Part shown: positions 32,022 to 64,000 of the stretch, piece after piece | Position numbering within the stretch: the stretch's first letter is position 1 | Layout of the letters: each line of letters begins with the position of its first letter | Source: Eunapius fragilis | Lineage: Eukaryota; Porifera; Demospongiae; Spongillida; Spongillidae | Reading direction: 5' to 3' | Assembly (NCBI GenBank): GCA_963681505.1 | Contig: OY811973.1 | Span: forward strand, 13,328,268-13,392,267 | DNA length: 64,000 nucleotides | The notes under the pieces: model-generated | Seen by the model: only the letters and a program-made list of their open reading frames with translations | Database searches by the model: none | Told to the model about the DNA's origin: nothing | Position numbers and translations under genes: made by a program

Positions 32022-32083
32022 TTAGGCTAACACTGCAAGGACCACTGCCAGCACTGTGACCACACCAAAGGCTTCTCTTGTAC
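32022..32083 (-). CDS. gene 1 tail exon (GPI-signal-like)
   Basis: Acceptor TCACACAAACAG, then phase 1 TREAFGVVTVLAVVLAVLA and stop TAA, 62 nt. The protein would end directly after about 14 hydrophobic residues, with no cytoplasmic tail, as GPI-anchor signals do. This exon is intact, but upstream exons of gene 1 are broken. Confidence 0.65.
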
Positions 32084-32103
32084 CTGTTTGTGTGAAAAGA
32101 CCA

Positions 32104-32345
32104 CAGTTAATGCCATCAACCCCTCCCCCCCCCCCCCCCCCAGTTAATGCCATCAACACCCCCCCCCTCCCCCAGTTAATGCCATCAACACCCCCCCCCC
32201 CCCCAGTTAATGCCATCAACACCCCCCCCCCCCCCCCCCCCAGTTAATGCCATCAACACCCCCCCCCCCCCCCCCCAGTTAATGCCATCAACACCCCCCC
32301 CCCCCCCCAGTTAATGCCATCAACCCCCCCCCCCCCCCCCCAGTT
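32104..32345 (-). repeat. minisatellite fused to poly-C runs
   Basis: Seven copies of AGTTAATGCCATCAAC separated by C runs of 9-20 bases, just upstream of the gene 1 tail exon. Other gene copies have a single AGTTAATGCCATCAAC at this place, so the expansion is private to this copy. Confidence 0.9.
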
Positions 32346-32423
32346 ACTTGATCTTGATATGAAGGCATCATTTATTATTTACTGTTTGCACATACTTTAA
32401 ATTCAAGGGTTAAGATGGCTGAC

Positions 32424-32540
32424 CTGAGGATAGAGTGGGCAGTAGTGTTGGTTGTGGTGTGGTCGTCGTGGCAACAACTGGAGTTGTGGTTGGTGGTTTG
32501 ACCACAGGTGGTGTGGGTGACACAGGTCTCATGTGGGAGA
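32424..32540 (-). pseudogene. gene 1 stalk exon (damaged)
   Basis: The minus strand encodes PPVVKPPTTTPVVATTTTPQ and LLPTLSS before donor TCCTCAG|GTCAGC, as in the intact stalk exons. The normal acceptor GACTGCCCAG and the first codons are replaced by unrelated sequence, and the nearest AG gives the wrong phase. Confidence 0.55.
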
Positions 32541-33204
32541 ACACAACAAGCACCTGTAAGTTATCTACCCAAAGGAAGTGCCCCCTACAGTACAGCAGTA
32601 CAGTGTCTCAATGTTATTAGTGGAGGGTGGACCATGACACGGGGCCCACAAGTATATTGTCCAGTGAACTATTGTATACTATACATTACTAGGCGTAACC
32701 ACAGTTGGCAATAACTGACTGCAATGCTCCATCTCATCCAGGCAACAGCTAGGGCCTGGTTAGACTGTACCACCAAAAATGATGTACACCTTACTGCAAT
32801 ACCACAATACCCTTTTGCCATAGCACCAGTAGTGGCTTGGGGAAGAAGGGGAGGGGAGGGGGAGAGGAGGGGGAGGGTGGTGGGTTAACAGGACACCATG
32901 TGGTTAAATTACATCATCACATTCCTCCTCCTCCCTCCTTTAAGGTACCAGAGGTGCCCTGATAATGTTAGCATCTACTGCCATTGACCCTGTACTCTGT
33001 GGGGCTAATGTGTTGAGCTACACCTCATTGCACTGTATGGACATCAAAGAGCATATTACAATGGCAGGACACATACACATACACACACACATACACACTA
33101 GGATGATAGCAGATACAACCCTACACTAATGTCAAAACAAGTAGAAATAAAAAGCAGTCCCCTACACAAGCACACCCTCTGCCAAGCATCCACCAATGAC
33201 TTAC

Positions 33205-33446
33205 TTGTTCTGGTTGTCATGGCAGCATTGCTGGTCCCAGCACAGTTGATGGCCACCACTGAGACAGTGTAGACTGTGTTATTGGTCAGTCCAGTGAATG
33301 TGTATGTGTTAGCATTAGCAGGTAGGGAGATAGGAGTGCTGCCATTGATACTGACATTGTAGCTGGTAGCCATGGGAACAGATGTCTAGGTCATTGTTAG
33401 CTGGTCTGAATAGATGTTTGTCAGTGATGTAATGTTTGAAGAGGGG
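33205..33446 (-). pseudogene. gene 1 FN3 exon (broken)
   Basis: Same borders as the intact copies (acceptor TGTTTCAG, donor AACAA|GTAAGT) but only 242 nt. Seven nt are lost near the start (CCCCTCTTCAAAC in place of CCCCTCCCAGTGCTCCAAAC), which shifts the frame. In the family frame the conserved first Trp codon TGG is TAG. Downstream text (MATSYNVSINGS to VVAINCAGTSNAAM) is preserved. Gene 1 is therefore a pseudogene or expresses only a skipped form. Confidence 0.8.
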
Positions 33447-33463
33447 CTGAAACATTGAGATTC

Positions 33464-33961
33464 GTACCAAGTGTGATAGGAGGCCTATGTACCAGGTGTG
33501 ATAGGAGGCTTATGTACCAGGTGTGATAGGAGGCTTATGTACCAGGTGTGATAGGAGGCTTATGTACCAGGTGTGATAGGAGGCTTATGTACCAGGTGTG
33601 ATAGGAGGCCTATGTACCAGGTGTGATAGGAGGCCTATGTACCAGGTGTGATAGGAGGCTTATGTACCAGGTGTGATAGGAGGCTTATGTACCAGGTATG
33701 ATAGGAGGCTTATGTACCAGGTGTGATAGGAGGCTTATGTACCAGGTGTGATAGGAGGCTTATGTACCAGGTGTGATAGGAGGCTTATGTACCAGGTGTG
33801 ATAGGAGGCTTATGTACCAGGTGTGATAGGAGGCTTATGTACCAGGTGTGATAAGAGGCTTATGTACCAGGTATGATAGGAGGCCTATGTACCAGGTGTG
33901 ATAGGAGGCTTATGTACCAGGTGTGATAGGAGGCTTATGTACCAGGTGTGATAGGAGGCTT
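33464..33961 (-). repeat. 25-bp satellite array, inverted orientation
   Basis: About 20 copies reading ACCAGGTGTGATAGGAGG in the plus strand, the reverse of every other array in the window. It abuts the next array head-on. Confidence 0.95.
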
Positions 33962-33972
33962 GGTGTGATTAA

Positions 33973-34365
33973 TCCTCCTATCACACCTAGCCTCCCATCA
34001 CACCTGGTACATAAACCTCCTATCACACCTGGTACATAGGCCTCCTATCACACCTGGTACATAAGCCTCCTATCACACCTGGTACATAGGCCTCCTATCA
34101 CACCTGGTACATAGGCCTCCTATCACACCTGGTACATAAGCCTCCTATCACACCTGGTACATAGGCCTCCTATCACACCTGGTACATAAGTTTCCTATCA
34201 CACCTGGTACATAAGCCTCCTATCACACCTGGTACATAAGCCTCCTATCACACCTGGTACATAAGCCTCCTATCACACCTGGTACATAAGCCTCCTATCA
34301 TACCTGGTACATAAGCCTCCTATCACACCTGGTACATAAGCCTCCTATTACACCTGGTACATAAG
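33973..34365 (+). repeat. 25-bp satellite array
   Basis: About 16 copies of the unit with core CCTCCTATCACACCTGG. Together with 33464-33961 it forms an inverted pair with only about 10 bp between arms. Confidence 0.95.
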
Positions 34366-34464
34366 CCTAATAACATGATGTGGTAACTGGAGCATACATA
34401 ATTGCTGATCCTATGTAGACATTTGATTATGTGACAGCAGTGTTCAATGCACACCACTGCTCAC

Positions 34465-35135
34465 CAAGGATTGATATGGTTGCCTTTCCAATAGAGGTGG
34501 TTGCACCAGATCCTAAAGTGTTGCTGGAACATGAGACCACTAGACCATCCATTGCTGGTGTGACCACCACAGAGAGGGTGGAGGTAAGACAGTAAATACT
34601 CATAGGAGGTGTGTTGGTTGCTATGAAGGGTCCACATGTGCCACTAGTGAGGCAGGACAGACCAGGAGTTGGAGCAAACTGTTGCAGTGTGATTGTGCCC
34701 CCTGCACAGCCCCCCACTGTAGGCCCATGCCATACTGTGCCCCCTGCACAGCCCCCCACTGTAGGCCCATGCCATACTGTGCCCCCTGCACAGCCCCCCA
34801 CTGTAGGCCCATGCCATACTGTGCCCCCTGCACAGCCCCCCACTGTAGGCCCATGCCATACTGTGCCCCCTGCACAGCCCCCCACTGTAGGCCCATGCCA
34901 TACTGTGCCCCCTGCACAGCCCCCCACTGTAGGCCCATGCCATACTGTGCCCCCTGCAAAGCCCCCCACTGTAGGCCCATGCCATACTGTGCCCCCTGCA
35001 CAGCCCCCCACTGTAGGTCCATGCCATACTGTGTTCCCAACATAGCTGCCAACGTTACATGTGTAGGTGACAGCAGTGTTAGGACATATCTTTGTGGGGC
35101 AGCTGGTCTCTCCTGTGAACTGACATGGGGAGAAA
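34465..35135 (-). pseudogene. gene 1 Ig-like exon with eight 42-bp repeats (frame defect)
   Basis: Acceptor CACCCTCCCAG, donor CCTTG|GTGAGC. Text: CPTKICPNTAVTYTC, eight copies of GGTVWHGPTVGGCA (14 residues), CGPFIATNTPPM, VVVTPAMDGLVVSC. The body is open. However, one T is missing right after the acceptor compared with genes 2-4, giving 671 nt in place of 672, so a phase-1 upstream exon would read it out of frame. Could be a sequencing slip in a T run. With the FN3 and stalk damage, the gene as a whole is probably inactive. Confidence 0.75.
34695..35030 (-). repeat. 42-bp coding VNTR, eight copies
   Basis: Tandem units coding GGTVWHGPTVGGCA, almost identical at the DNA level (one copy has Phe for Cys). 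All three frames on both strands stay open across it. Confidence 0.95.
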
Positions 35136-35714: not shown

Positions 35715-35739
35715 CGCTCAATAAGTGTCCGGATCGCAT
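35715..35739 (-). CDS. gene 1 first-exon candidate
   Basis: An ATG at 35739 gives MRSGHLLS plus one base, ending at a strong donor GAGCG|GTAAGT in phase 1, the phase the Ig exon needs. It is too short for a signal peptide; an upstream ATG gives another frame (MFLKTVTSRHLHAIRTLIER, phase 2). It may be mostly 5' untranslated. Confidence 0.35.
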
Positions 35740-35844
35740 GGAGATGGCGAGAAGTAACTGTTTTTAAAAACATTTATTTCACTACATTTCCAGTAAATCC
35801 AGTCTACAGAGATAGATTATCAATAAGTAGATAAGAGGGTCGAC

Positions 35845-37268: not shown

Positions 37269-37330
37269 TTAGGCTAACACTGCAAGGACCACTGCCAGCA
37301 CTGTGACCACACTAAAGGCTTCTCTTGTAC
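37269..37330 (-). CDS. gene 2 tail exon (GPI-signal-like)
   Basis: Acceptor TCACACAAACAG, phase 1, TREAFSVVTVLAVVLAVLA then stop. One Gly-to-Ser change from gene 1. Ends in a bare hydrophobic run. AATAAA on the minus strand at 36852-36857 is a plausible polyadenylation signal about 410 bp on. Confidence 0.7.
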
Positions 37331-37566: not shown

Positions 37567-37652
37567 ACAAATAGTCCCAACACATTAAAGAATTTGTACT
37601 ATTTATTTATAAATATGCTCACTGTTTAAATTCAAGGGTTAAAATGGCTGAC

Positions 37653-37793
37653 CTGAGGATGGAGTGGGCAGTAGTGTTGGTTGTGGTGTGGTCGTCGTGG
37701 CAACAAATGGAGGTTGGTATGAGGTTGGTAGAGGCGTGGCTGATGGTTGGACCACAGGCGGTGCAGACGTTGTGGGTGCAGCTGGTCCACTAC
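37653..37793 (-). CDS. gene 2 stalk exon
   Basis: 141 nt, phase 1-1, acceptor TGACTACTCAG, donor TCCTCAG|GTCAGC. Codes SGPAAPTTSAPPVVQPSATP, LPTSYQPPFVATTTT and LLPTPSS: a Thr/Ser/Pro stretch expected to be O-glycosylated and to hold the FN3 domain off the membrane. Intact. Confidence 0.75.
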
Positions 37794-38740: not shown

Positions 38741-38989
38741 TTGTTCTGGTTGTGATGGCAGCATTGCTGTTCCCAGCACAGTTGATGGCCACCACTGAGA
38801 CAGTGTAGACTGTGTTATTGGTCAGTCCAGTGAATGTGTATGTGTTAGCATTAGCAGGTAGGGAGATAGGAGTGCTGCCATTGATACTGACACTGTAACT
38901 GGTAGCCATGGGAACAGATGTCCAGGTCACTGTTAGCTGGTCTGAATAGATGCTTGTCAGCGATGTAATGTTTGGAACACTGGGAGGTG
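38741..38989 (-). CDS. gene 2 FN3 exon
   Basis: 249 nt, phase 1-1, acceptor CTGAAACATTGAG-side TTTCAG and donor AACAA|GTAAGT. Intact FN3: SVPNITSLTSIYSDQLTVTW, MATSYSVSINGS, FTGLTNNTVYTVSVVAINCA, GNSNAAITTRT. It can still be expressed even though the Ig exon of this gene is broken, because skipping the Ig exon keeps frame. Confidence 0.8.
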
Positions 38990-39104: not shown

Positions 39105-41713
39105 CTGGTACATTGGTACATAGGCCTCCTATCACACCTGGTACATAGGCCTCCTATCACACCTGGTACATAGGCCTCCTATCACACCTGGTACATAAGC
39201 CTCCTATTACACCTGGTACATAGGCCTCCCATCACACCTGATACATAAGCCTCCTATTACACCTGGTACATAAGCCTCCTATTACACCTGGTACATAGGC
39301 CTCCCATCACACCTGATACATAAGCCTCCTATTACACCTGGTACATAGGCCTCCTATCACACCTGGTACATAGGCCTCCTATCACACCTGGTACATAAGC
39401 CTCCTATCACACCTGGTACATAGGCCTCCTTTCACACCTGGTACATAAGCCTCCTATCACACCTGGTACATAGGCCTCCTATCACACCTGGTACATTAGC
39501 CTCCTATCACACCTGGTACATAGGCCTCCTATCACACCTGGTACATAAGCCTCCTATCACACCTGGTACATAAGCCTCCTATCACACCTGGTACATAAGC
39601 CTCCTATCACACCTGGTACATAAGCCTCCTATCACACCTAGTACATAGGCCTCCTATCACACCTGGTACATAAACCTCCTATCACACCTGGTACATAAGC
39701 CTCCTATCACACCTGGTACATAAGCCTCCTATCACACCTGGTACATAAGCCTCCTATCACACCTGGTACATAAGCCTCCTATCACACCTGGTACATAAGC
39801 CTCCTATCACACCTGGTACATAAGCCTCCTATCACACCTGGTACATAAGCCTCCTATCACACCTGGTACATAGGCCTCCTATCACACCTGGTACATAAGC
39901 CTCCTATCACACCTGGTACATAGGCCCCCTATCACACCTGGTACATAAGCCTCCTATCACACCTGGTACATAAGCCTCCTATCACACCTGGTACATAGGC
40001 CTCCTATTACACCTGGTACATTAGCCTCCTATCACACCTGGTACATAGGCCTCCTATCACACCTGGTACATAGGCCTCCTATCACACCTGGTACATTAGC
40101 CTCCTATCACACCTGGTACATAGGCCTCCTATCACACCTGGTACATAAGCCTCCTATCACACCTGGTACATAAGCCTCCTATCACACCTGGTACATAGGC
40201 CTCCTATCACACCTGGTACATTAGCCTCCTATCACACCTGGTACATAGGCCTCCTTTCACACCTGGTACATAAGCCTCCTATCACACCTGGTACATAAGC
40301 CTCCTATCACACCTGGTACATAGGCCTCCTTTCACACCTGGTACATAAGCCTCCTATCACACCTGGTACATAAGCCTCCTATCACACCTGGTACATAAGC
40401 CTCCTATCACACCTGGTACATAGGCCTCCTATCACACCTGGTACATAAGCCTCCTATCACACCTGGTACATAAGCCTCCTATCACACCTGGTACATAAGC
40501 CTCCTATCACACCTGGTACATAAGCCTCCTATCACACCTGGTACATAAGCCTCCTATCACACCTGGTACATAAGCCTCCTATCACACCTGGTACATAAGC
40601 CTCCTATCACACCTGGTACATAAGCCTCCTATCACACCTGGTACATAGGCCTCCTATCACACCTGGTACATAAGCCTCCTATCACACCTGGTACATAAGC
40701 CTCCTATCACACCTGGTACATAAGCCTCCTATCACACCTGGTACATAGGCCTCCTATCACACCTGGTACATAAGCCTCCTATCACACCTGGTACATAAGC
40801 CTCCTATCACACCTGGTACATAGGCCTCCTATCACATCTGGTACATAGGCCTCCTATCACACCTGGTACATAAGCCTCCTATCACACCTGGTACATAAGC
40901 CTCCTATCACACCTGGTACATTAGCCTTCTATCACACCTGGTACATAGGCCTCCTATCACACCTGGTACATAAGCCCTGGTACATAAGCCTCCTATCACA
41001 CCTGGTACATAAGCCTCCTATCACACCTGGTACATAGGCCTCCTATCACACCTGGTACATAAGCCTTCTATCACACCTGGTACATAAGCCTCCTATCACA
41101 CCTGGTACATAGGCCTCCTATCACACCTGGTACATAGGCCTCCTATCACACCTGGTACATAAGCCTCCTATCACACCTGGTACATAGGCCTCCTATTACA
41201 CCTAGTACATAAGCCTCCTATCACACCTGGTACATAGGCCTCCTATCACACCTGGTACATAAGCCTCCTATCACACCTGGTACATAGGCCTCCTATTACA
41301 CCTGGTACATAGGCCTCCTATCACACCTGGTACATAAGCCTCCTATCACACCTGGTACATAAGCCTCCTATCACACCTAGTACATAAGCCTCCTATCACA
41401 CCTGGTACATAGGCCTCCTATCACACCTGGTACATAAGCCTCCTATCACACCTGGTACATAGGCCTCCTATTACACCTGGTACATAGGCCTCCTATCACA
41501 CCTGGTACATAAGCCTCCTATCACACCTGGTACATAAGCCTCCTATCACACCTGGTACATAGGCCTCCTATCACACCTGGTACATAAGCCTCCTATCACA
41601 CCTGGTACATAAGCCTCCTATCACACCTGGTACATAGGCCTCCTATCACACCTGGTACATAAGCCTCCTATCACACCTGGTACATAAGCCTCCTATCACA
41701 CCTGGTACATAAG
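39105..41713 (+). repeat. 25-bp satellite array, about 104 copies
   Basis: Head-to-tail units with core CCTCCTATCACACCTGG followed by TACATAAG or TACATAGG. It fills the intron between the Ig and FN3 exons of gene 2. Confidence 0.97.
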
Positions 41714-41812
41714 CCTAATAACATGATGTGGTAACTGGAGCATACATAATTGCTGATCCTATGTAGACATTTGATTATGTGACAGTAGTGTTCAATACAC
41801 ACCATGGATCAC

Positions 41813-42254
41813 CAAGGATTGATATGGTTGCCTTTCCAATAGAGGTGGTTGCACCAGATCCTAAAGTGTAGCTGGAACATGAGACCACCAGACCATCTAT
41901 TGCTGGTGTGAGAGAGTGGAGGTAAGACAGTAAATATTCATAGAAGGTGTGTTGGTTGCTATGAAGGGTCCACATGTGCCACAAGTGAGGCAGGACAGAC
42001 CAGGAGTTGTTTCAGTGTGATTGTACCCCCTGTATAGCCCCCCACTGTAGGCCCATGCCATACTGTGCCTCCTGCACTACCCCCCACGGTAGGCCCATAC
42101 TATACTGTACCCCCTGCACAGCCCCCCACTGTAGGTCCATGCCATACTGTGCTTCCAACAAAGCTGCTAACGTTACATGTGTAGTTGACAGCAGTGTTAG
42201 GACATATCTTCATGGGACAGCTGGTCCCTCCTGTGAGCTGACATGGGGAGAAAA
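41813..42254 (-). pseudogene. gene 2 Ig-like exon (broken)
   Basis: 442 nt with family borders (acceptor CTCCCAG, donor CCTTG|GTGATC). Two defects: a TAG stop inside the second of three diverged 42-bp repeats (after GGTV), and a 10-nt deletion before the donor side (GGTGTGAGAGAGTGG in the plus strand, where intact copies have an extra CCACCACAGA). A further loss near the CGPF segment shortens it. The same 10-nt deletion is found in gene 3. Confidence 0.8.
42023..42148 (-). repeat. 42-bp coding VNTR, three diverged copies
   Basis: The most degenerate copy of the VNTR, with several substitutions per unit, consistent with loss of selection. Confidence 0.85.
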
Positions 42255-42840: not shown

Positions 42841-42865
42841 CGCTCAATAAGTGTCCGGATCGCAT
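42841..42865 (-). CDS. gene 2 first-exon candidate
   Basis: Same layout as gene 1: MRSGHLLS, phase 1 donor GAGCG|GTAAGT. Confidence 0.3.
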
Positions 42866-42970
42866 GGAGATGGCGAGAAGTAACTGTTTTTAAAAACATT
42901 TATTTCCCTACATTTCCAGTAAATCCAGTCTACAGAGATAGATTATCAATAAGTAGATAAGAGGGTCGAG

Positions 42971-44358: not shown

Positions 44359-44420
44359 TTAGGCTAACACTGCAAAGACCATTGCCAACACTGTGACCAC
44401 ACCAAAGGCTTCTCTTGTAC
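44359..44420 (-). CDS. gene 3 tail exon (GPI-signal-like)
   Basis: 62 nt, phase 1. The hydrophobic run differs by small changes (LAMVFAVLA in place of LAVVLAVLA) but stays hydrophobic and ends at the same TAA. Conservation of hydrophobicity despite substitutions suggests function. Confidence 0.7.
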
Positions 44421-44881: not shown

Positions 44882-45022
44882 CTGAGGATGGAGTGGGCAG
44901 TAGTGTTGGTTGTGGTGTGGTCATCGTGGCAACAACTGGTGGTTGATATGATGTTGGGAGAGGTGTGGCTGATGGTTGGACCACAGGTGGTGTAGACGTT
45001 GTGGGTGCGGCTGGTCCACTAC
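44882..45022 (-). CDS. gene 3 stalk exon
   Basis: 141 nt, phase 1-1, acceptor GTGACTGCCCAG, donor TCCTCAG|GTCAGC. SGPAAPTTSTPPVVQPSATP, LPTSYQPPVVATMTT, LLPTPSS. Intact Thr/Pro stalk. Confidence 0.75.
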
Positions 45023-45826: not shown

Positions 45827-46075
45827 GTGTTCTGGTTGCCATAGCAGCACTGCTGTTCCCAGCACAGTTGATGACCACCACTGAGACAGTGTAGACTGTG
45901 TTATTGGTCAGTCCAGTGAATGTGTATGTGATAGCATTAGCAGGTAGGGAGATAGGAGTGCTGCCATTGATACTGACATTGTAGCTGGTAGCCATGGGAA
46001 CAGATGCCCAGGTCACTGTTAGCTGGTCTGAATAGATGCTTGTCAGTGATGTAATGTTTGGAGCACTGGGAGGGG
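45827..46075 (-). CDS. gene 3 FN3 exon
   Basis: 249 nt, phase 1-1, acceptor TGTTTCAG, donor AACAC|GTAAGT. Intact FN3 with SAPNITSLTSIYSDQLTVTW, ASVPMATSYNVSINGS and VYTVSVVVINCAGNSSAAMA. Like gene 2, it remains usable if the broken Ig exon is skipped. Confidence 0.8.
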
Positions 46076-46190: not shown

Positions 46191-49100
46191 AATCACACCT
46201 GGTACATAAGCCTCCTATCACACCTGGTGCATAAGCCTCCTATCACACCTGGTACATAAGCCTCCTATCATACCTGGTACATAAGCCTCCTATCACACCT
46301 GGTACATAAGCCTCCTATCATACCTGGTACATAAGCCTCCTATCACACCTGGTACATAAGCCTCCTATCACACCTGGTACATAAACCTCCTATCACACCT
46401 GGTACATAGGCCTCCTATCACACCTGGTACATAGGCCTCCTATCACACCTGGTACATAGGCCTCCTATCACACCTGGTACATAAGCCTCCTATCACACCT
46501 GGTACATAAGCCTCCTATCACACCTGGTACATAGGCCTCCTATCACACCTGGTACATAGGCCTCCTATCACACCTGGTACATAAGCCTCCTATCACACCT
46601 GGTACATAAGCCTCCTATCACACCTGGTACATAAGCCTCCTATCATACCTGGTACATAAGCCTCCTATCACACCTGGTACATAGGCCTCCTATCACACCT
46701 GGTACATAAGCCTCCTATCACACCTGGTACATAAGCCTCCTATCACACCTGGTACATAGGCCTCCTATCACACCTGGTACATAAGCCTCCTATCACACCT
46801 GGTACATAAGCCTCCTATCACACCTGGTACATAAGCCTCCTATCACACCTGGTACATAAGCCTCCTATCACACCTGGTACATAAGCCTCCTATCACACCT
46901 GGTACATAGGCCTCCTATCACACCTGGTACATAAGCCTCCTATCACACCTGGTACATAAGCCTCCTATCACACCTGGTACATAAGCCTCCTATCACACCT
47001 GGTACATAAGCCTCCTATCACACCTGGTACATAAGCCTCCTATCACACCTGGTACATAGGCCTTCTATCACACCTGGTACATAAGCCTCCTATCACTCCT
47101 GGTACATAGGCCTCCTATCACACCAGGTACATAGGCCTCCTATCACACCTGGTACATAGGCCTCCTATCATACCTGGTACATAGGCCTCCTATCATACCT
47201 GGTACATAAGCCTCCTATCACACCTGGTACATAGGCCTCCTATCACACCTGGTACATAAGCCTCCTATCACACCTGGTACATAGGCCTCCTATCACACCT
47301 GGTACATAGGCCTCCTATCACACCTGGTACATAAGCCTCCTATCACACCTGGTACATAAGCCTCCTATCACACCTGGTACATAAGCCTCCTATCACACCT
47401 GGTACATAAGCCTCCTATCACACCTGGTACATAAGCCTCCTATCACACCTGGTACATAAGCCTCCTATCACACCTGGTACATAAGCCTCCTATCACACCT
47501 GGTACATAAGCCTCCTATCACACCTGGTACATAGGCCTTCTATCACACCTGGTACATAAGCCTCCTATCACTCCTGGTACATAGGCCTCCTATCACACCT
47601 GGTACATAGGCCTCCTATCATACCTGGTACATAAGCCTCCTATCACACCTGGTACATAAGCCTCCTATCACACCTGGTACATAAGCCTCCTATCACACCT
47701 GGTACATAAGCCTCCTATCACACCTGGTACATAGGCCTCCTATCACACCTGGTACATAAGCCTCCTATCACACCTGGTACATAGGCCTTCTATCACACCT
47801 GGTACATAAGCCTCCTATCACACCTGGTACATAAGCCTTCTATCACACCTGGTACATAGGCCTCCTATCATACCTGGTACATAAGCCTCCTATCACACCT
47901 GGTACATAGGCCTCCTATCACACCTGGTACATAAGCCTCCTATCACACCTGGTACATAAGCCTCCTATCACACCTGGTACATAAGCCTCCTATCACACCT
48001 GGTACATAAGCCTCCTATCACACCTGGTACATAAGCCTCCCATCACACCTGGTACATAAGCCTCCTATCACACCTGGTACATAGGCCTTCTATCACACCT
48101 GGTACATAAGCCTCCTATCACTCCTGGTACATAGGCCTCCTATCACACCAGGTACATAAGCCTCCTATCACACCTGGTACATAAGCCTCCTATCACACCT
48201 GGTACATAGGCCTCCTATCACACCTGGTACATAGGCCTCCTATCACACCTGGTACATAAACCTCCTATCACACCAGGTACATAAGCCTCCTATCACACCT
48301 GGTACATAAGCCTCCTATCACACCTGGTACATAAGCCTCCTATCACACCTGGTACATAAGCCTCCTATCACACCTGGTACATAGGCCTCCTATCACACCT
48401 GGTACATAAGCCTCCTATCACACCTGGTACATAAGCCTCCTATCACACCTGGTACATAAGCCTCCTATCACAACTGGTACATAAACCTCCTATCACACCT
48501 GGTACATAAGCCTCCTATCACACCTGATACATAGGCCTCCTATCACACCTGGTACATAAACCTCCTATCACACCTGGTACATAGGCCTCCTATCACACCT
48601 GGTACATAGGCCTCCTATCACACCTGGTACATAAGCCTCCTATCACACCTGGTACATAGGCCTCCTATCACACCTGATACATAGGCCTCCTATCACACCT
48701 GGTACATAGGCCTCCTATCACACCTGGTACATAAGCCTCCTATCACACCTGGTACATAAGCCTCCTATCACACCTGGTACATAAGCCTCCTATTACGGCT
48801 GGTACATAGGCCTCCTATCACACCTGGTACATAAGCCTCCTATCACACCTGATACATAAGCCTCCTATCACACCTGGTACATAAGCCTCCTATCACACCT
48901 GGTACATAAGCCTCCTATCACACCTGATACATAGGCCTCCTATCACACCTGATACATAGGCCTCCTATCACACCTGGTACATAAACCTCCTATCACACCT
49001 GGTACATAGGCCTCCTATCACACCTGGTACATAGGCCTCCTATCACACCTGGTACATAAGCCTCCTATCACACCTGGTACATAGGCCTCCTATCACACCT

Positions 49101-49610
49101 GATACATAGGCCTCCTATCACACCTGGTACATAGGCCTCCTATCACACCTGGTACATAAGCCTCCTATCACACCTGGTACATAAGCCTCCTATCACACCT
49201 GGTACATAAGCCTCCTATTACGGCTGGTACATAGGCCTCCTATCACACCTGGTACATAAGCCTCCTATCACACCTGATACATAAGCCTCCTATCACACCT
49301 GGTACATAAGCCTCCTATCACACCTGGTACATAAGCCTCCTATCACACCTGATACATAGGCCTCCTATCACACCTGATACATAGGCCTCCTATCACACCT
49401 GGTACATAAGCCTCCTATCACACCTGATACATAAGCCTCCTATCACACCTGGTACATAAGCCTCCTATCACACCTGGTACATAAGCCTCCTATCACACCT
49501 GGTACATAAGCCTCCTATCACACCTAGTACATAAGCCTCCTATCACACCTGGTACATAAGCCTCCTATCATACCTGGTACATAAGCCTCCTATCACACCT
49601 GGTACATAAG
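46191..49610 (+). repeat. 25-bp satellite array, about 137 copies
   Basis: Longest array, 3.4 kb. Diverged units (TATTACGGCTGG, TATCACTCCTGG, CCTGATACAT) recur at regular distances, for example near 48793 and 49217, which shows block-wise amplification of about 425 bp. Confidence 0.97.
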
Positions 49611-49709
49611 CCTAATAACATGATGTGGTAACTGGAGCATACATAACTGCTGATCCTATGTAGACATTTGATTATGTGACAGTAGTGTTCAATACACACC
49701 ATGGATTAC

Positions 49710-50248
49710 CAAGGATTGATATGGTTGCCTTTCCAATATAGGTGGTTGCACCAGATCCTAAAGTGTAGCTGGAACATGAGACCACCAGACCATCCTTTGC
49801 TGGTGTGAGAGAGTGGAGGTAAGACAGTAAATATTCATAGAAGGTGTGTTGGTTGCTATGAAGGGTCCACATGTGCCACTAGTGAGGCAGGACAGACCAG
49901 GAGTTGGAGCAAACTGTTGCTGTGCGATTGTGCCCCCTGCACAGCCCCCCACTGTAGGCCCATGCCATACTGTGCCCCCTGCACAGCCCCCCACTGTAGG
50001 CCCATGCCATACTGTGCCCCCTGCACAGCCCCCCACTGTAGGCCCATGCCATACTGTGCCCCCTGCACAGCCCCCCACTGTAGGCCCATGCCATACTACT
50101 GTGCCCCCTGCACAGCCCCCCACTGTAGGCTCATGCCATACTGTGTTCCCAACAAAGCTGCTAACGTTACATGTGTAGTTGACAGCAGTGTTAGGACATA
50201 TCTTCGTGGGACAGCTGGTCCCTCCTGTGAGCTGACATGGGGAGAAAA
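49710..50248 (-). pseudogene. gene 3 Ig-like exon (broken)
   Basis: 539 nt, not a multiple of three. Five 42-bp repeats (one with an extra codon, GTVVWHGP) and CGPFIATNTPSM are open. The 10-nt deletion shared with gene 2 shifts the frame (LSHQQRMVWWSHVPATL then stop) before GLVVSC. The donor is CCTTG|GTAATC. Probably non-functional as an Ig domain. Confidence 0.8.
49930..50142 (-). repeat. 42-bp coding VNTR, five copies
   Basis: Five units, one with a 3-nt insertion; otherwise nearly identical units. Confidence 0.9.
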
Positions 50249-50573
50249 CTGGGAGGGTGTGGGGGGAGGGGTGTATGCGATCATTCAGGACATTTTTTTA
50301 AAATCCTCTTGAAATCAAAAATTGATTCGACCCGTTTTTTTCCCCATGTGATGGATTTTCTTCCTTTAATTATAAGTTCTTACTCTTAGCGTCCGCGTGT
50401 ATGCGGTACATGTGTACAGATGCATGCATGTAGAAAGACCTGAATTAATGTGTGGTAACTACAATTTGCATTCGCTCATTCAACCATGGATTAAAGACCT
50501 ACGGAGAGTTCCGTAGGCATGATTCAACATAGACCCCGTGAGACTTCGACGTGTATAAACACATACACTAAGC

Positions 50574-52371
50574 TAGGTACTGGGGAATCTATGATTTTAG
50601 ACCGTAAAATCCTAGACGTGAAATGAAAAAATTTCTGTTCGCAAATTTAAACTTTTCTGTTGACACCATTTGGTAAAAACGATCTGGTAGCTTCATTCAA
50701 CTTGATTATGGCTTATCATGCATTCAGAACGACTGCTGAGTGCGTCAGCAATAGGCCAGACTAGTTTTTAAGCTTTAAAACACGCATCGTATTTCGTAAG
50801 TGTTGCTCAAATCGAATACAATTTTCTACCCACGATTTTCGACTCTTAAACGCTGTGTCCCCTCCATGGTAAGCATTCTCCCCTCTAGATACTTCATCCA
50901 TCTATCCTTTTACGAAATTTTGTATAGATGAGTCCTAGCGCCGCGGTCCTTGTACGATGCGCCAGTTACTGAACATCATTGAACCAATACATCAAATGGT
51001 ACTTTACACTAGGATCTTAAAAAACATCATGGTTAATATCTTAAACCATACCTTTTGAGTTATCATCACTAAAAACATCAGAATTCCAATTTGAGACAGA
51101 ACTTTCAGGGTCAAAACATTAATGCATCATCAGGATTAGGTTTTTGGCTTACAACTCAACAAATAGTTCGACTTAAGAGCTCATTTTTTGATGCATAGAT
51201 AACTCATTGTAAGAGCTATATATATGGAATGCTTGAACTCTTAAGTCCAGTTCATTGTGAAGATAGGCTTGTTTTTATAAGGATTTTGATATGACCGCTG
51301 CTTAGCATCACTATGGCCGATTTAATTCGACTTAAGAGATGAAAATTATGTCACACTACTCAGAGGTCCCTAAAGTAGCCATATAATTTTTTATAATTTA
51401 TTGGACACTTGCTAACAGTGATACAAATTGCAACGAAAGCAGAAAAGTGAAAAAAAATTTAAGAATTGTACTCAATGTTTGGATTCTTCAGTAAATGTAT
51501 ACGATACACGCGTGACGTCAGTGGTGGTGTGCGTGCTAGAGATAGCTATGTACGGCGAGTTTTTCGTTTCGAACGCCACGGGTTCTTTTCAGAACCATTG
51601 CAGCGTGGCATCCCAAATGAACCCTTTCGCTGATGAACCAAGTTCTAGTGGAACAGGAGCCAAGAGACCGATCCGCAAGCGCGATATGACGGCTTTATTA
51701 GCGGAATTTGCTTTGCCATCGCCAATGAACTCGAGATCTGAAATTCTCTGCTAGGTATATACTTAAATCGCAGGTGGCATGAGAATTTCACCAATGCATT
51801 ATACAATGGGCATGTTGTAAAAATAAGCCATAAAGCAAAGGTACCAAAACTAACAATTACATACTGGACTATAGATGAATCAGGAGAAGAAGGAATTGAT
51901 AACACAATTACAGTTATTGAAATGCTCGTGGACTATTTAAATGGTGATTTAGTGTTTGTTGAGGATGGAAATGATGTACCTCAATATTGAATAATAACAT
52001 TATTGTGCTTGATTTTGTGCGTGTTTCATTGTTTGTCAATTTTTATGTTAACAATTTGAAAAGATAAAAGTGAGGAAACTAAATGATGAGACTTTAAAAA
52101 GTCTTCCCTGTATCAGAATCACTTATGTGCAATGCTTGAAATTAAAATCTCCAGGTTACGCCTCGTTATAACACAACCGTCACAGTTTTTATTGCGATTA
52201 CGCATTAACCGCTGTGCTAAAAAAGTTGTCACTTTGAGGATATGTATCTCTGGTATCGAATATGCTATGGTGACGCAAGAAGTACTGTTAAACCCACCTT
52301 GTTTTGCTCTTTCTAATGATGGTAATATTATTATCCTCTGAGCATTTTTTTTTTAAATTCCCCAGTACCTA
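50574..52371. mobile_element. 1.8-kb DNA transposon insertion, 7-bp TSD
   Basis: Ends TAGGTACTGGGGAAT and its exact inverse ATTCCCCAGTACCTA, flanked by the direct repeat ACTAAGC (50567-50573 and 52372-52378). Units 1, 2 and 4 have the uninterrupted site (ACACTAAGCGTAC), so the borders are certain. Inside, a frame (51428-51754; MNPFADEPSSSGTGAKRPIR, then KRDMTALLAEFALPSPMN) and a shifted one ending at 51990 (KVPKLTITYWTIDESGEEG, DLVFVEDGNDVPQY) look like coding text, but I do not recognise a transposase. TSD length and ends do not identify a superfamily. Confidence 0.9.
51428..51990 (+). CDS. unknown protein segments inside the transposon
   Basis: Two frames follow each other with a one-base offset around 51735-51754. 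The first has an acidic/Ser-rich piece then a basic KRPIRKRDM stretch; the second carries RWHENFTNALYNGHVVKISH and an acidic end with a TGA stop at 51988. The offset may be a frameshift or a short intron (GTATATACTTAAATCGCAG lies exactly there, but 19 nt is too short for normal splicing). Could be a remnant of the element's own gene or a captured host fragment. Confidence 0.35.
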
Positions 52372-52634
52372 ACTAAGCGTACATTGTCAACCACTTATTT
52401 CGTTGTCGTAACTTTCTGTGTGGTAATTACTACACGTTCGTGAGTTCCCATGCATACAATAAAATTAGTCAAGTTGCTGTTTTTCGAACGGTTGTGGTAA
52501 TCAAGTGCTAAGTAGAATCCTGGTTGTGAGCTAAATTTTTTTTACCTCCTGTGGTCCAGTGAGTGTGGTGCATACAGCCATCGACAGTAGTGATATAATA
52601 AACTCACGAGTGATAACACAAACGCATCACTTAC

Positions 52635-52659
52635 CGCTCAATAAGTGTGCGGATCGCAT
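52635..52659 (-). CDS. gene 3 first-exon candidate
   Basis: Same layout as the others with one change (MRSAHLLS), phase 1 donor GAGCG|GTAAGT. Confidence 0.3.
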
Positions 52660-52764
52660 GGAGATGGCGAGAAGTAACTGTTTTTAAAAACATTTATTTC
52701 ACTACATTACCAGTAAATCCAGTCTACAGAGATAGATTATCAGTATGTAGATAAGAGGGTCGAG

Positions 52765-54184: not shown

Positions 54185-54246
54185 TTAGGCTAACACTGCA
54201 AGGACCACTGCCAGCACTGTGACCACACCAAAGGCTTCTCTTGTAC
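54185..54246 (-). CDS. gene 4 tail exon (GPI-signal-like)
   Basis: 62 nt, phase 1, TREAFGVVTVLAVVLAVLA then TAA. The residues joined from the stalk (PSSG followed by T) provide small residues suitable as an anchor attachment site. No basic stop-transfer residues follow the hydrophobic run, which argues against an ordinary transmembrane protein. Confidence 0.75.
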
Positions 54247-54895: not shown

Positions 54896-55036
54896 CTGAG
54901 GATGGAGTGGGCAGTAGTGTTGGTTGTGGTGTGGTCGTCGTGGCAACAACTGGTGGTTGATATGATGTTGGGAGAGGTGTGGCTGATGGTTGGACCACAG
55001 GTGGTGTAGACGTTGTGGGTGCGGCTGGTCCGCTAC
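54896..55036 (-). CDS. gene 4 stalk exon
   Basis: 141 nt, phase 1-1. SGPAAPTTSTPPVVQPSATP, LPTSYQPPVVATTTT, LLPTPSS; acceptor GTGACTGCCCAG, donor TCCTCAG|GTCAGC. Intact. Confidence 0.78.
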
Positions 55037-55865: not shown

Positions 55866-56114
55866 TTGTTCTGGTTGCCATAGCAGCACTGCTGGTCCCA
55901 GCACAGTTGATGGCCACCACTGAGACAGTGTAGACTGTGTTATTGGTCAGTCCAGTGAATGTGTATGTGTTATCATTGGCAGGTAGGGAGATAGGAGTGC
56001 TGCCATTGATACTGACATTGTAGCTGGTAGCCGTGGGAACAGATATCCAGGTCACTGATAGCTGGTCTGAATAGATGATTGTCACTGATGTAATGTTTGG
56101 AGCACTGGGAGGAA
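55866..56114 (-). CDS. gene 4 FN3 exon
   Basis: 249 nt, phase 1-1, acceptor ATGTTTCAG, donor AACAA|GTAAGT. SAPNITSVTIIYSDQLSVTW, TATSYNVSINGS, FTGLTNNTVYTVSVVAINCA. Intact. With its Ig, stalk and tail exons also open, gene 4 is the best candidate for an active gene in the window. Confidence 0.82.
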
Positions 56115-57673: not shown

Positions 57674-58261
57674 CAAGGATTGATATGGTTGCCTTTTCAA
57701 TAGAAGTGGTTGCACCAGATCCTAAAGTGTTGCTGGAACATGAGACCACCAGACCATCCATTGCTGGTGTGACCACCACAGAGAGGTTGGAGGTAAGACA
57801 GTAAATATTCATAGGAGGTGTGTTGGTTGCTATGAAGGGTCCACATGTGCCACTAGTGAGGCAGGACAGACCAGGAGTTGGAGCAAACTGTTGCTGTGTG
57901 ATTGTGCCCCCTGCACAGCCCCCCACTGTAGGCCCATGCCATACTGTACCCCCTGCACAGCCCCCCACTGTAGGTCCATGCCATACTGTGCCCCCTGCAC
58001 AGCCCCCCACTGTAGGCCCATCCCATACTGTGCCCCCTGCACAGCCCCCCACTGTAGGCCCATGCCATACTGTGCCCCCTGCACAGCCCCCCACTGTAGG
58101 CCCATGCCATACTGTACCCCCTGCACAGCCCCCCACTATAGGCCCATGCCATACTGTGTTCCCAACATAGCTGCCAACGTTACACATGTAGTTGACAGCA
58201 GTGTTAGGACATATCTTCGTGGGACAGCTGGTCTCTCCTGTGAGCTGACATGGGGAGAAAA
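57674..58261 (-). CDS. gene 4 Ig-like exon with six 42-bp repeats
   Basis: 588 nt (196 codons), phase 1-1, acceptor CCACACCCTCCCAG, donor CCTTG|GTGAGC. Reads FSPCQLTGETSCPTKICPNT, AVNYMCNVGSYVGN, six copies of GGTVWHGPTVGGCA (one with Asp for His), CGPFIATNTPPM, LSVVVTPAMDGLVVSC. Open throughout and lacking the 10-nt deletion. The tandem repeat is inserted where the plus-strand Ig copies have a single VPSVGGC, so it lengthens one surface loop of the Ig-like fold by 14 residues per copy. Confidence 0.82.
57904..58155 (-). repeat. 42-bp coding VNTR, six copies
   Basis: Six units in frame; nonsynonymous differences (His/Asp, Thr/Ile) between units. Confidence 0.95.
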
Positions 58262-58855: not shown

Positions 58856-58880
58856 CGCTCAATAAGTGTCCGGATCGCAT
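58856..58880 (-). CDS. gene 4 first-exon candidate
   Basis: MRSGHLLS, phase 1, donor GAGCG|GTAAGT. The alternative upstream ATG gives MFLKTVASRHLHAIRTLIER in phase 2. Neither is a normal secretion signal. Confidence 0.35.
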
Positions 58881-58985
58881 GGAGATGGCGAGAAGCAACT
58901 GTTTTTAAAAACATTTATTTCCCTACATTTCCAGTAAATCCAGTCTACAGAGATAGATTATCAATATGTAGATAAGAGAGTCGAG

Positions 58986-58997
58986 TGCGCATGCGCA
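58986..58997. promoter_or_regulatory. NRF1-like palindrome, promoter of gene 4
   Basis: TGCGCATGCGCA at the conserved distance upstream of the first-exon candidate. The adjoining 100 bp (GATGGGAGATATCACCGCCC and on) are strongly conserved in all four units. Confidence 0.55.
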
Positions 58998-59714
58998 TTT
59001 TCAATCAGTGACGACAAACGTTTGCCTGCAGTTTTTCCTGGAAGGATGGGAGATATCACCGCCCGGCCTATCGGTTTCTCCGTGTCTGCAGCCGGTGCCG
59101 GAGTGTCATATTCAGTCTATCATAGATTTGATTTTTTTTTTTAAATATAAAATTGTTCTGCTTTGAAGTGGTGGCTTGGAATTGAAACATCTCTGCATCC
59201 TTGCCGTCCTGATCACCTGCTAGACCTCTAGGACACCATGCAGTGATGTATAGAGGTGGAGGGGACGTCACAACAGCTCAGCACATGCTACACACAGCAC
59301 ACATGTATTTAATGGTCAGTGGTGTGACCACAGCTAATAATCTAACACCTCAATTGGGGAGGGGGGGGGGTGCCAGTTGTTTTAGTGCTCCAAAAGAATA
59401 GAATATGGCACATTCACACTGTGTGTGTATATTGTTCTGTGTGTGTGTGTGTGCATGTGTCTAACCATCTATATTCTGGCTGTACACAAGGTATTTCCCT
59501 ACAAGCCAATGAATGACTAAAATGGTGTGGCCATCATTCTAATGTTGCACACTATATGTGTATATGTATGCATATGGTTACAATATGCACAAGGTAGCTA
59601 ACACCTTCATTGGAACTATAATATGGGATGAAGGACAGAACATAGAGTGTGTGGTGGTATATGGAAAACCCCCAGGGGTTGTAATATCTCACCACAGGAA
59701 GTCACCACCAGTGG

Positions 59715-60399: not shown

Positions 60400-60461
60400 T
60401 TAGGCTAACACTGCAAGAACCACTGCCAGCACTGTGACCACACCAAAGGCTTCTCTTGTAC
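60400..60461 (-). CDS. gene 5 tail exon (GPI-signal-like)
   Basis: 62 nt, phase 1, same protein as gene 4 with one silent change in the hydrophobic run. Confidence 0.72.
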
Positions 60462-60606
60462 CTGTTTGTGTGAAAAGACCACAGTTAATGCCATCAACCC
60501 AATTGTTGAACCTTTAGTTCTAAGCTGGTAGACCACTGGTATTGGACCAATGATACCAGCAGAGATACGATTGAGCAGTAACCTTGTCAGCCAACAGCCT
60601 ATACCT

Positions 60607-61321: not shown

Positions 61322-61410
61322 AGCTACAACAGTCCCAACACAATAAGAATTCATACTATTTATTTGTACTGTTTACACATACTTTAAATTCAAGGGTTAA
61401 AATGGCTGAC

Positions 61411-61551
61411 CTGAGGATGGAGTGGGCAGTAGTGTTGGTTGTGGTGTGGTCGTCGTGGCAACAACTGGTGGTTGATATGATGTTGGGAGAGGTGTGGCTG
61501 ATGGTTGGACCACAGGTGGTGTAGACGTTGTGGGTGCGGCTGGTCCGCTAC
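61411..61551 (-). CDS. gene 5 stalk exon
   Basis: 141 nt, phase 1-1, intact and the same as gene 4. Confidence 0.76.
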
Positions 61552-61958
61552 CTGGGCAGTCACATGACAGGTCACATGACATAACATGCACCCATCCCTT
61601 TTTTGGGGGTTGGGGGGGGGGGGTGTGTACAGTCTAAACTTATGCACCAATCTATCCAATGTTAGACTTGAAATGCTCAACCATATCTAGGGCTGGAATA
61701 GCACATCTTGGTTATTGTCAGGGGGTAGAGGGGAAGGAGAAGGTGACATAACACCATATGGTAGGCTTTTAGTACTTTGCCCCACGCACATCTTCCCTCT
61801 CTCTCCAGTAGCTACCAGTCTGCATACCTTAAACCTTCTCTACTGACTCATTGTTTTAGTCCCATGCGCAAGGAATACAGGCATCCATATATGCGTGTGT
61901 ATCTAGGCGCAGGGCCCCTCCTCCCCCACCACATGTACATGCAGCCCCTAATCTCACC

Positions 61959-62369
61959 CAGCACACACACACCCTCCAGCACACACACTGGGGAGTGTGG
62001 GGGTATGTGCTGGGTGAGTGTGGAGTGCATGCACCCCAGCAACACACATACACATCCCACACTTGCCCCAGCATACACATGCCCCCAGCATACACATGCC
62101 CCCAGCATACACAAGCCCCCAGCTACCATTCCCAACACACATCCTCCAGTACACATCCTCCTTTCAGCACACCCTCCCCAACACAACCTCCCCAGCATAC
62201 CCTCCCCAGTACACATCTTCTCATCAGCACACACCCAGCACACCCCCCAGCACATCCTCCCAGCACACACCCAGCACACCTCCAGCACACCCTCCCCAGC
62301 ACACCCCCAGCACACCCTCAGCACATCCTCCCAGCACACACACATCCTCCAGTACACATACTCGCACTC
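61959..62369. repeat. CACACCCYCCAG low-complexity intron (gene 5)
   Basis: Copy of 55445-55855. Confidence 0.85.
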
Positions 62370-62379
62370 AATGACTTAC

Positions 62380-62628
62380 TTGTTCTGGTTGCCATAGCAG
62401 CACTGCTGGTCCCAGCACAGTTGATGGCCACCACTGAGACAGTGTAGACTGTGTTATTGGTCAGTCCAGTGAATGTGTATGTGTTATCATTGGCAGGTAG
62501 GGAGATAGGAGTGCTGCCATTGATACTGACATTGTAGCTGGTAGCCGTGGGAACAGATATCCAGGTCACTGATTGCTGGTCTGAATAGATGATTGTCACT
62601 GATGTAATGTTTGGAGCACTGGGAGGAA
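62380..62628 (-). CDS. gene 5 FN3 exon
   Basis: 249 nt, phase 1-1. Differs visibly from gene 4 by one base (Leu to Gln: IYSDQQSVTW). Its Ig exon and promoter lie beyond the right edge of the window. Confidence 0.8.
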
Positions 62629-62742
62629 CTGAAACATTGAGATATGTACATGTAAACTGTTGTGTAGTAGAATTACATATCATGGCTGTACGTTCCCATG
62701 GCAACTGATCACAAATTGCACCTTATTGCTATTTCCATGTGC

Positions 62743-64000
62743 CAATCACACCTGGTACATAAGCCTCCTATCACACCAGGTACATAAGCCTCCTATCACA
62801 CCTGGTACATAAGCCTCCTATCACACCTGGTACATCAGCCTCCTATCACACCTGGTACATAAGCCTCCTATCACACCAGGTACATAAGCCTCCTATCACA
62901 CCTGGTACATAAGCCTCCTATCACACCTGGTACATACGCCTCCTATCACACCTGGTACATAAGCCTCCTATCATGCCCGGTACAAAGGCCTCCTATCACA
63001 CCTGGTACATAAGCCTCCTATCACACCTGCTACATATGCCTCCTATCATACCTGGTACATAAGCCTCTTATCACACCTGGTACATAGGCCTCCTATCACA
63101 CCTGGTACATAAGCCTCCTATCACACCTGGTACATAGGCCTCCTATCACACCTGGTACATAAGCCTCCTATCACACCTGGTACATAAGCCTCCTATCACA
63201 CCTGGCACATAAGCCTCCTATCATACCTGGTACATAAGCCTCCTATCACACCTGGTACATAAGCCTCCTATCACACCTGGTACATAAGCCTCCTATCACA
63301 CCTGGTACATAGGCCTCCTATCACACCTGGTACATAAGCCTCCTATCACACCTGGTACATAAGCCTCCTATCACACCTGGTACATAAGCCTCCTATCACA
63401 CCTGGTACATAGGCCTCCTATCACACCTGGCACATAGGCCTCCTATCACACCTGGTACATAAGCCTCCTATCACACCTGCTACATATGCCTCCTATCATA
63501 CCTGGTACATAAGCCTCTTATCACACCTGGTACATAGGCCTCCTATCACACCTGGTACATAAGCCTCCTATCACACCTGGTACATAAGCCTCCTATCACA
63601 CCTGGTACATAGGCCTCCTATCACACCTGGTACATACGCCTCCTATCACACCTGGTACATAAGCCTCCTATCACACCTGGTACATAGGCCTCCTATCACA
63701 CCTGGTACATAAGCCTCCTGTCACACCTGGTACATAGGCCTCCTATCACACCTGGTACATAAGCCTCCTATCACACCTGGTACATACGCCTCCTATCACA
63801 CCTGGTACATAAGCCTCCTATCATGCCCGGTACAAAGGCCTCCTATCACACCTGGTACATAAGCCTCCTATCACACCTGCTACATATGCCTCCTATCATA
63901 CCTGGTACATAAGCCTCCTATCACACCTGGTACATAAGCCTCTTATCACACCTGGTACATAAGCCTCTTATCACACCTGGTACATAAGCCTCCTATCGCA
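62743..64000 (+). repeat. 25-bp satellite array, at least 50 copies
   Basis: Starts identically to the array at 56230 (AATCACACCTGG, then a CACCAGG variant) and runs off the window. Confidence 0.97.

What the first reader, a model, noticed from the sequence alone, without database searches (positions are those of the whole stretch)
32022..64000. Tandem array of small Ig-FN3 surface-protein genes, apparently undescribed
Five minus-strand gene copies share one design: Ig-like exon, FN3 exon, Thr/Pro stalk exon, hydrophobic tail exon. The FN3, stalk and tail junctions are phase 1 in every copy. Seen directly: splice borders, exon lengths (249, 141, 62 nt constant; Ig exon variable) and duplication unit starts at 34366, 41714, 49611, 57575. 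Known: phase 1-1 Ig/FN3 exons are the classic shuffling modules of extracellular proteins. Inferred: a young, fast-changing family of outer-surface recognition or adhesion proteins, possibly for self/non-self recognition or microbe binding.
Basis: partly seen in the sequence, partly recalled or inferred. Interest (0 to 1): 0.85.

Follow-up and report, generated by a model that had tools for sequence, protein, structure and literature searches.

The report
Mostly broken sponge cell-surface recognition genes
A freshwater sponge carries a run of duplicated genes for a small membrane-anchored protein with an antibody-like tip; most of the copies seen here are broken, but they belong to a very large, apparently undescribed receptor family that could help sponges tell self from non-self or sense microbes.

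Summary
The exon design is real: on the minus strand, Ig-like, FN3, Thr/Pro stalk and short hydrophobic tail exons with phase-1 junctions. The claim of five working genes is not. Copies 1, 2, 3 and 5 carry frameshifts or stops in the Ig or FN3 exon. Copy 4 is open from Ig to tail, but no convincing start was found. The one complete model is a sixth copy just right of the window: 305 aa, signal peptide-Ig-FN3-stalk-GPI-like tail.

Ig-exon length varies mainly through an in-frame 42-bp minisatellite (14 aa per unit) inside the domain. Pfam does not see the Ig domain; the low-confidence predicted fold of copy 4 is closest to T-cell-receptor V domains.

The array is one GPI-like branch of a large V-set-like/FN3 family. 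Own-genome searches gave 118 TM-plus-tyrosine-tail matches. Two Ig types occur with three tail types, mostly in Ephydatia muelleri.

Best reading: a birth-and-death array of cell-surface recognition proteins, organised like the Hydractinia Alr complex and built like CEACAM-type paired receptors. Ligand and role are inferred. Ten literature searches listed no description.

The parts
32022..32083 (-). copy 1 tail exon (GTREAFGVVTVLAVVLAVLA*)
32425..32526 (-). copy 1 shortened stalk, 5' end different
33205..33446 (-). copy 1 FN3 exon, broken: 7-nt deletion and in-frame TAG
33464..34368 (.). 25-bp minisatellite in Ig-FN3 intron of copy 1, two halves in opposite orientation
34465..35135 (-). copy 1 Ig exon, 671 nt (one base out of frame), 8 units of the 42-bp repeat
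35715..35757 (-). copy 1 signal-like exon, donor GTAAGT
37269..37330 (-). copy 2 tail exon
37653..37793 (-). copy 2 stalk exon
38741..38989 (-). copy 2 FN3 exon, open
39114..41716 (.). 25-bp minisatellite, intron of copy 2
41813..42254 (-). copy 2 Ig exon, broken: TAG and two 10-nt deletions (one shared with copies 3 and 5); 3 repeat units
42841..42883 (-). copy 2 signal-like exon
44359..44420 (-). copy 3 tail exon
44882..45022 (-). copy 3 stalk exon
45827..46075 (-). copy 3 FN3 exon, open
46192..49613 (.). 25-bp minisatellite, intron of copy 3
49710..50248 (-). copy 3 Ig exon, broken by the shared 10-nt deletion; 5 repeat units
52635..52677 (-). copy 3 signal-like exon
54185..54246 (-). copy 4 tail exon, 62 nt, ends in stop (GPI-like)
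54896..55036 (-). copy 4 Thr/Pro stalk exon, 141 nt
55866..56114 (-). copy 4 FN3 exon, 249 nt
   Evidence: a composite query holding this exon is over the Pfam cut-off for PF00041
56231..57577 (.). 25-bp minisatellite, intron of copy 4
57674..58261 (-). copy 4 V-set-like Ig exon, 588 nt, open, 6 repeat units
57903..58158 (-). 42-bp in-frame minisatellite inside the Ig exon (TVWHGPTVGGCAGG)
   Evidence: pLDDT under 50 in the model
58856..58898 (-). copy 4 signal-like exon with GTAAGT donor; no convincing ATG exon found
60400..60461 (-). copy 5 tail exon
61411..61551 (-). copy 5 stalk exon
62380..62628 (-). copy 5 FN3 exon, open (its broken Ig exon lies outside the window)
62745..64000 (.). 25-bp minisatellite, intron of copy 5, reaches the window's end
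   Evidence: to 63997; intron continues outside
15175..15582 (+). further family Ig exon, + strand, no repeat
20894..21139 (+). further family FN3 exon, + strand
21788..21889 (+). partial stalk match, + strand
21989..22390 (+). further family Ig exon, + strand, no repeat
24585..24824 (+). further family FN3 exon, + strand

Best explanation
This is a birth-and-death array of one gene type from a large freshwater-sponge receptor family. The working product would be a small GPI-anchored surface protein: a signal peptide, a membrane-distal V-set-like Ig domain that does the binding, an FN3 spacer, a glycosylatable Thr/Pro stalk and a C-terminal hydrophobic signal replaced by a lipid anchor. Minisatellites in the introns and inside the Ig exon favour unequal exchange, which duplicates units, lengthens the Ig domain in 14-residue steps and leaves many dead copies. 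Paralogues carry instead a transmembrane segment with tyrosine motifs, so the family as a whole would couple surface recognition (of other sponge cells or of microbes) to signalling, with GPI forms as co-receptors, adhesion partners or decoys. Shown: exons, lesions, repeats, clustering and different Ig-tail combinations. Supported by prediction: the folds. Inferred: GPI anchoring, expression, exchange mechanism, ligand and function.
Against: No RNA evidence for any copy. Start exon of copies 1-5 unresolved. The two-codon first exon of copy 6 could be chance (120 of 2000 base shuffles also offered one within 200 nt), and a second signal-like candidate, MKRSLLSVLVFITFCVRDKPH, lies 5.8 kb upstream of copy 6. 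No dedicated GPI predictor was run. The copy-4 Ig model has low confidence (mean pLDDT 56) and no Foldseek match under E 0.001; VIA rows for the better two-domain model were mainly FN3 tandems. dN/dS is below 1 on average in both domains (Ig 0.72, FN3 0.86 without L018; 0.59 and 0.75 with it), so diversifying selection is not shown. The E. muelleri models are automatic, some visibly fused or intron-retaining, 10 of 21 tail-typed proteins had no assignable Ig type, and each two-ITIM combination rests on one model.
Confidence: 0.68

Rival explanations
1. All five copies work; the lesions are assembly errors or segregating alleles in a repeat-rich stretch.
For: The region is rich in minisatellites, where consensus errors are likeliest; the two 1-nt deletions in the copy-5 repeat could be such errors.
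Against: Copies 2, 3 and 5 share a 10-nt deletion outside the repeats, and copy 1 has a 7-nt deletion plus TAG in FN3: inherited lesions, not random errors.
Confidence: 0.08
2. One large gene with alternative Ig-FN3 cassettes spliced to a shared start, like Dscam or protocadherins.
For: No convincing start exon was found for copies 1-5; phase-1 symmetric exons could be spliced in any order.
Against: Every unit has its own stop-bearing tail exon and its own signal-like exon with donor, so the units look like separate genes.
Confidence: 0.05
3. The family is ordinary structural cell adhesion, with no role in self/non-self or microbe recognition.
For: Ig-FN3 tandems are typical of adhesion molecules (NCAM tops the fold search); expansion may reflect the general tandem duplication reported for E. 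muelleri (PMC7385117, passages); dN/dS is not above 1.
Against: Very large copy number, ITIM-type tyrosine motifs in five E. muelleri members, different Ig types on one framework and the V-set-like tip fit recognition receptors better.
Confidence: 0.3
4. Microbe-binding innate receptors, with GPI copies as decoys, rather than allorecognition.
For: Ig-domain genes changed expression on microbial challenge in two marine sponges, and FN3-containing genes in one (PMC6208332, passages); GPI next to ITIM forms resembles CEACAM paired receptors (recalled).
Against: No ligand or expression data here; the marine genes are not shown to be of this family.
Confidence: 0.3

Closest known systems
Hydractinia Alr genes / allorecognition complex (ARC)
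   Same: Clustered Ig-superfamily surface proteins of a non-bilaterian animal with many broken genes (19 further full-length genes and 44 gene models taken as pseudogenes, PMC11067881, passages); [quoted passage not shown]
   Different: No sequence relation tested; Alr1/Alr2 are single-pass transmembrane, the array here is GPI-like; polymorphism and a fusion phenotype are shown for Alr1/Alr2 and untested here.
CEACAM and other vertebrate paired receptors (recalled, no call)
   Same: V-set tip, tandem gene family, GPI-tailed forms beside ITIM-tailed forms.
   Different: No homology shown; one Ig plus one FN3 here rather than strings of Ig domains.
Ephydatia muelleri Em0025g136a and the Em0005/Em0025/Em0006 genes
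   Same: True homologues: similar signal peptide, FN3, stalk and GPI-like tail in Em0025g136a; same Ig type in other members.
   Different: Em0025g136a has the other Ig type (30% identity); no 42-bp repeat in the sequences read; listed only as hypothetical proteins or locus tags.
Geodia cydonium sponge adhesion molecule with Ig-like domains
   Same: Ig-like domain in a sponge surface molecule tied to adhesion (PMC11999971, passages).
   Different: Not compared here; recalled as two Ig domains without this FN3-stalk-GPI design.
NCAM Ig5-FN1 tandem
   Same: Closest Foldseek match to the E. muelleri Ig-FN3 pair (3mtr_A, E 3.7e-8).
   Different: 17% identity; neural adhesion molecule with many domains (recalled).

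Membership tests
Fibronectin type III domain (PF00041) | score over the Pfam cut-off | tested here: met
   36.1 bits against cut-off 25 for copy 6; 32.2 for the composite with the copy-4 FN3 exon
Immunoglobulin superfamily, V-set | match to a Pfam Ig family by sequence | tested here: not met
   no Ig family for the first domain
Immunoglobulin superfamily, V-set | V-type Ig sandwich | tested here: inconclusive
Immunoglobulin superfamily, V-set | conserved B- and F-strand Cys and C-strand Trp | tested here: met
   C25, W106 and C173 of copy 4 invariant in A3, 36 sequences; strand names are my assignment
GPI-anchored proteins | N-terminal signal peptide and C-terminal hydrophobic tail without cytoplasmic part | tested here: inconclusive
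   copy-6 model has both by inspection, no predictor run; for copies 1-5 no start found
GPI-anchored proteins | release by phospholipase or labelled anchor | not testable with these tools
   needs protein
Hydractinia Alr family | sequence homology to Alr1/Alr2 | not tested
   no Alr sequence was fetched
Hydractinia Alr-like system (works like) | genomic complex of many Ig-type genes and pseudogenes | tested here: met
   lesions
Hydractinia Alr-like system (works like) | allelic polymorphism and fusion/rejection phenotype | not testable with these tools
   one assembly only
ITIM receptors | [SIVL]xYxx[IVL] in the cytoplasmic tail | tested here: inconclusive
   for the E. muelleri relatives: two such motifs in 4 proteins and one in a fifth, of 27 with a hydrophobic segment after FN3; the window array has no cytoplasmic tail, and the two-motif tail was not found in the window's genome, where only the TM part matched (3 hits)

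The most novel reading that the evidence does not exclude
The C3 cluster and its relatives are a sponge histocompatibility complex: a V-set/FN3 receptor family that sets self/non-self recognition through mixed GPI, ITIM-type and YDEV tails, with the 42-bp repeat adding length variation inside the recognition domain, so that V-set recognition receptors of the Alr/CEACAM style reach back to sponges.
Probability: 0.18. Interest if true: 0.92.

Novelty: new variant of a known kind. Interest (0 to 1): 0.62.

Why it matters
Sponges reject foreign tissue, yet the receptors are not settled (recalled). A large clustered family with a V-set-like tip, exchangeable tails and immunoreceptor-type tyrosine motifs in freshwater sponges gives named genes for a direct test, and bears on how early V-set recognition receptors arose. 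It also warns that counts of such families are inflated by dead copies: here four of five.

Tried and rejected
Dscam-like single gene: disfavoured because each unit has its own stop-bearing tail and signal-like exon. Start exons upstream of the units: hydrophobicity and donor scans gave nothing convincing for copies 1-5; for copy 6 they listed MKRSLLSVLVFITFCVRDKPH, 5.8 kb upstream, set aside because the nearer exon has homology to an E. muelleri signal peptide. Blocks shared upstream of two genes proved to be inverted-repeat elements, not exons. A candidate MAAAAIPIPIPTPEE|GTAAGG occurs in copies 1-5 but is not signal-like. Variant haplotypes of the repeat-bearing Ig exon: of 34 proteins listed, none but the window's own P0058 covered more than 65% of the query. 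The short tail query found only 3 places, all in the array, a weak test. The two-ITIM tail of E. muelleri was not found in the window's genome. Positive selection: not shown (pairwise NG86, 45 Ig pairs, 65 of 66 FN3 pairs; 8 Ig and 25 FN3 pairs had dN above dS). The exons were picked by hand: L017 and all Ig exons of copies 1-5 were left out, as were FN3 of copies 1 and 5, while FN3 of the broken copies 2 and 3 was kept and may raise the FN3 ratio. Foldseek on the copy-4 Ig model had no match under E 0.001. Huene et al. 2022 is not held; its content is known only through passages in PMC11067881 and PMC11999971. Not done: dedicated signal-peptide or GPI prediction, gene trees, species naming. 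A freshwater sponge other than E. muelleri is inferred from 69-73% identity of the six best named E. muelleri hits and 219 Mb against 326 Mb for E. muelleri (PMC7385117, start of abstract). My first count of the shared deletion was 8 nt (notebook); recounted as 10 nt. Signal-like exon borders were likewise corrected there.
Full report
What was given. The window is C3:13328268-13392267 of a 219 Mb, 24-contig genome. In one search, 120 of 130 matches were listed; 54 of these 120 carry a name and all 54 are Ephydatia muelleri, the rest being unnamed ENA entries (63) or the window's own (3). The named rows (120 of 158 listed) are E. muelleri too. So the host is a freshwater sponge; no call named the species.

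The array. Searching exon peptides against 184 kb around the window places tail, stalk and FN3 exons of five minus-strand units inside the window. Ig exons of copies 1-4 are inside it, the Ig exon of copy 5 lies just right of it, and a sixth unit follows. Copy 4 reads: Ig 58261-57674, FN3 56114-55866 (249 nt), stalk 55036-54896 (141 nt), tail 54246-54185 (62 nt), joined in phase 1 by canonical sites. The tail GTREAFGVVTVLAVVLAVLA followed by a stop has the form of a GPI signal (inference; no predictor was run).

Broken copies. Copy 1 has an Ig exon one base short (671 nt), a 7-nt deletion and TAG in FN3, and an altered stalk. Copy 2 has a TAG and two 10-nt deletions in Ig. Copy 3 has one 10-nt deletion in Ig, in the same place as in copies 2 and 5. 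Copy 5 also has two 1-nt deletions and stops in Ig, and a TAA in its signal-like exon. Copy 4 is open from Ig to tail. So of five units in the window, four are disabled and one is undecided.

The start. The signal peptide of E. muelleri Em0025g136a (P0059) found a stretch 1.9 kb upstream of the copy-6 Ig exon (E 0.011). It ends in a donor context GGACACTT(A/G)TTGAGCG|GTAAGT, which occurs six times in the genome at up to 3 mismatches, once in each of the six units, with no hit for the reversed pattern. With a 6-nt first exon ATGTTG|GTAAGC and a 54-nt intron, copy 6 gives a 305-aa protein beginning MLFLRFTVFAICLCGHLLS (in L001 its exons run from 8385 down to 3108). The tiny first exon is only moderately secure: 120 of 2000 base shuffles offer one within 200 nt, and another signal-like candidate lies 5.8 kb upstream. 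In copies 1-5 the counterpart exon reads LLLAISM(R/Q)S(G/A)HLLS, with a stop in copy 5, and no convincing ATG exon was found.

Repeats. A 42-bp unit (TVWHGPTVGGCAGG) lies inside the Ig exon, between strands C and C' by my reading of the models, with 8, 3, 5, 6 and 10 units in copies 1-5; copy 6 and the other Ig exons aligned have none. It has pLDDT under 50 in the copy-4 model (residues 42-100). The Ig-FN3 introns carry a 25-bp minisatellite in all six copies, up to 3.4 kb long.

The family. Own-genome searches gave 150 scored matches for FN3 (the cap; 265 candidates), 118 for the Ig exon and 118 for a transmembrane-plus-tail exon. The tool says such counts are lower bounds for large families; fragments and broken copies are included. 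C3 and C8 hold most of the last two lists. L014 and L015 show Ig, FN3 and an exon with TM and tail (VYEEVG or VYNEVG, then AYGSHSS), while L017 has stops. Of 125 proteins held by then, 27, all E. muelleri, have a hydrophobic segment after FN3; 22 have a tail behind it, four of these with two ITIM-type motifs and a fifth with one; five end at the hydrophobic segment, one of which (P0003) looks like a model artefact. Of 21 proteins typed by tail, 11 could be typed by Ig as well: A with YDEV-type 3, A with two ITIMs 1, B with GPI-like 2, B with two ITIMs 1, B with YDEV-type 4; copy 6 supplies A with GPI. Several are single automatic models. Copy 6 and Em0025g136a agree in signal peptide 10/19, FN3 56/77, stalk 21/39 and tail 8/20, but Ig only 36/120, as expected from exon swapping at phase-1 borders, though faster divergence of Ig alone is not excluded.

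Evolution. Pairwise NG86 among hand-picked exons gives dN/dS 0.72 for Ig (0.59 with L018) and 0.86 for FN3 (0.75 with L018). The Ig stretch with the highest dN (codons 121-135, dN 0.361) covers the F-G loop by my assignment, but dS is higher there (0.474). No positive selection is claimed.

How it probably works. The signal peptide and GPI-like tail put the protein on the outer membrane; the V-set-like tip binds; FN3 and a Thr/Pro stalk hold it away from the membrane. TM-tailed relatives could signal through tyrosine motifs. Unequal exchange at minisatellites makes and breaks copies. Binding partner and role are inferred: cell-cell (self/non-self) or microbial recognition.

Comparison. The organisation resembles the Hydractinia allorecognition complex, where 19 further full-length genes and 44 gene models taken as pseudogenes were counted (PMC11067881, passages), and whose proteins carry V-set and I-set domains (PMC11999971, passages). 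Homology to Alr was not tested. The E. muelleri genome paper reports widespread tandem duplication, but its main text contains neither 'immunoglobulin' nor 'fibronectin' (PMC7385117, term search and passages). PMC4772301 (passages) reports FN3 and Ig domains beside SRCR-like domains in marine sponges, a different design. Ten library searches, of which one search was on Hydractinia and on the E. muelleri genome, listed no paper that by title or start of abstract describes this family; most listed papers were not opened, and the library holds open-licence papers only.

Verdict. Observation partly confirmed; interpretation partly supported; a new variant of a known kind (clustered Ig-type recognition receptors), with the interest in the larger family more than in these mostly dead copies.

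Noticed in passing
window 50573-52372: 1.8-kb insertion in the upstream region of copy 3 with 15-bp terminal inverted repeats (TAGGTACTGGGGAAT) and a 7-bp target-site duplication (ACTAAGC), absent from copy 4: a DNA transposon.
   Followed up: partly
window 33464-34368: The 25-bp minisatellite of copy 1 is an inverted pair: its two halves run in opposite directions.
   Followed up: no
G000 C8 (0.07-7.1 Mb): Dozens of more distant FN3, Ig and TM-tail matches, probably a second large branch of the family.
   Followed up: no
window 25800-27294: Complex minisatellite with nested periods of 22, 34, 56 and 231 bp (GTCCAATAGCACTAGTTG...).
   Followed up: no
window 17872-18273: Two neighbouring 45-bp tandem arrays, unit divisible by three and so possibly coding.
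   Followed up: no
window 58970-59030 (copy 4): A GCGCATGCGC palindrome, like an NRF-1 site (recalled), lies upstream of the signal-like exon: possible promoter.
   Followed up: no
L012:1850-2550 and window 12946-16106: Inverted-repeat elements (arms of about 75-120 bp, MITE-like) scattered near family genes.
   Followed up: partly
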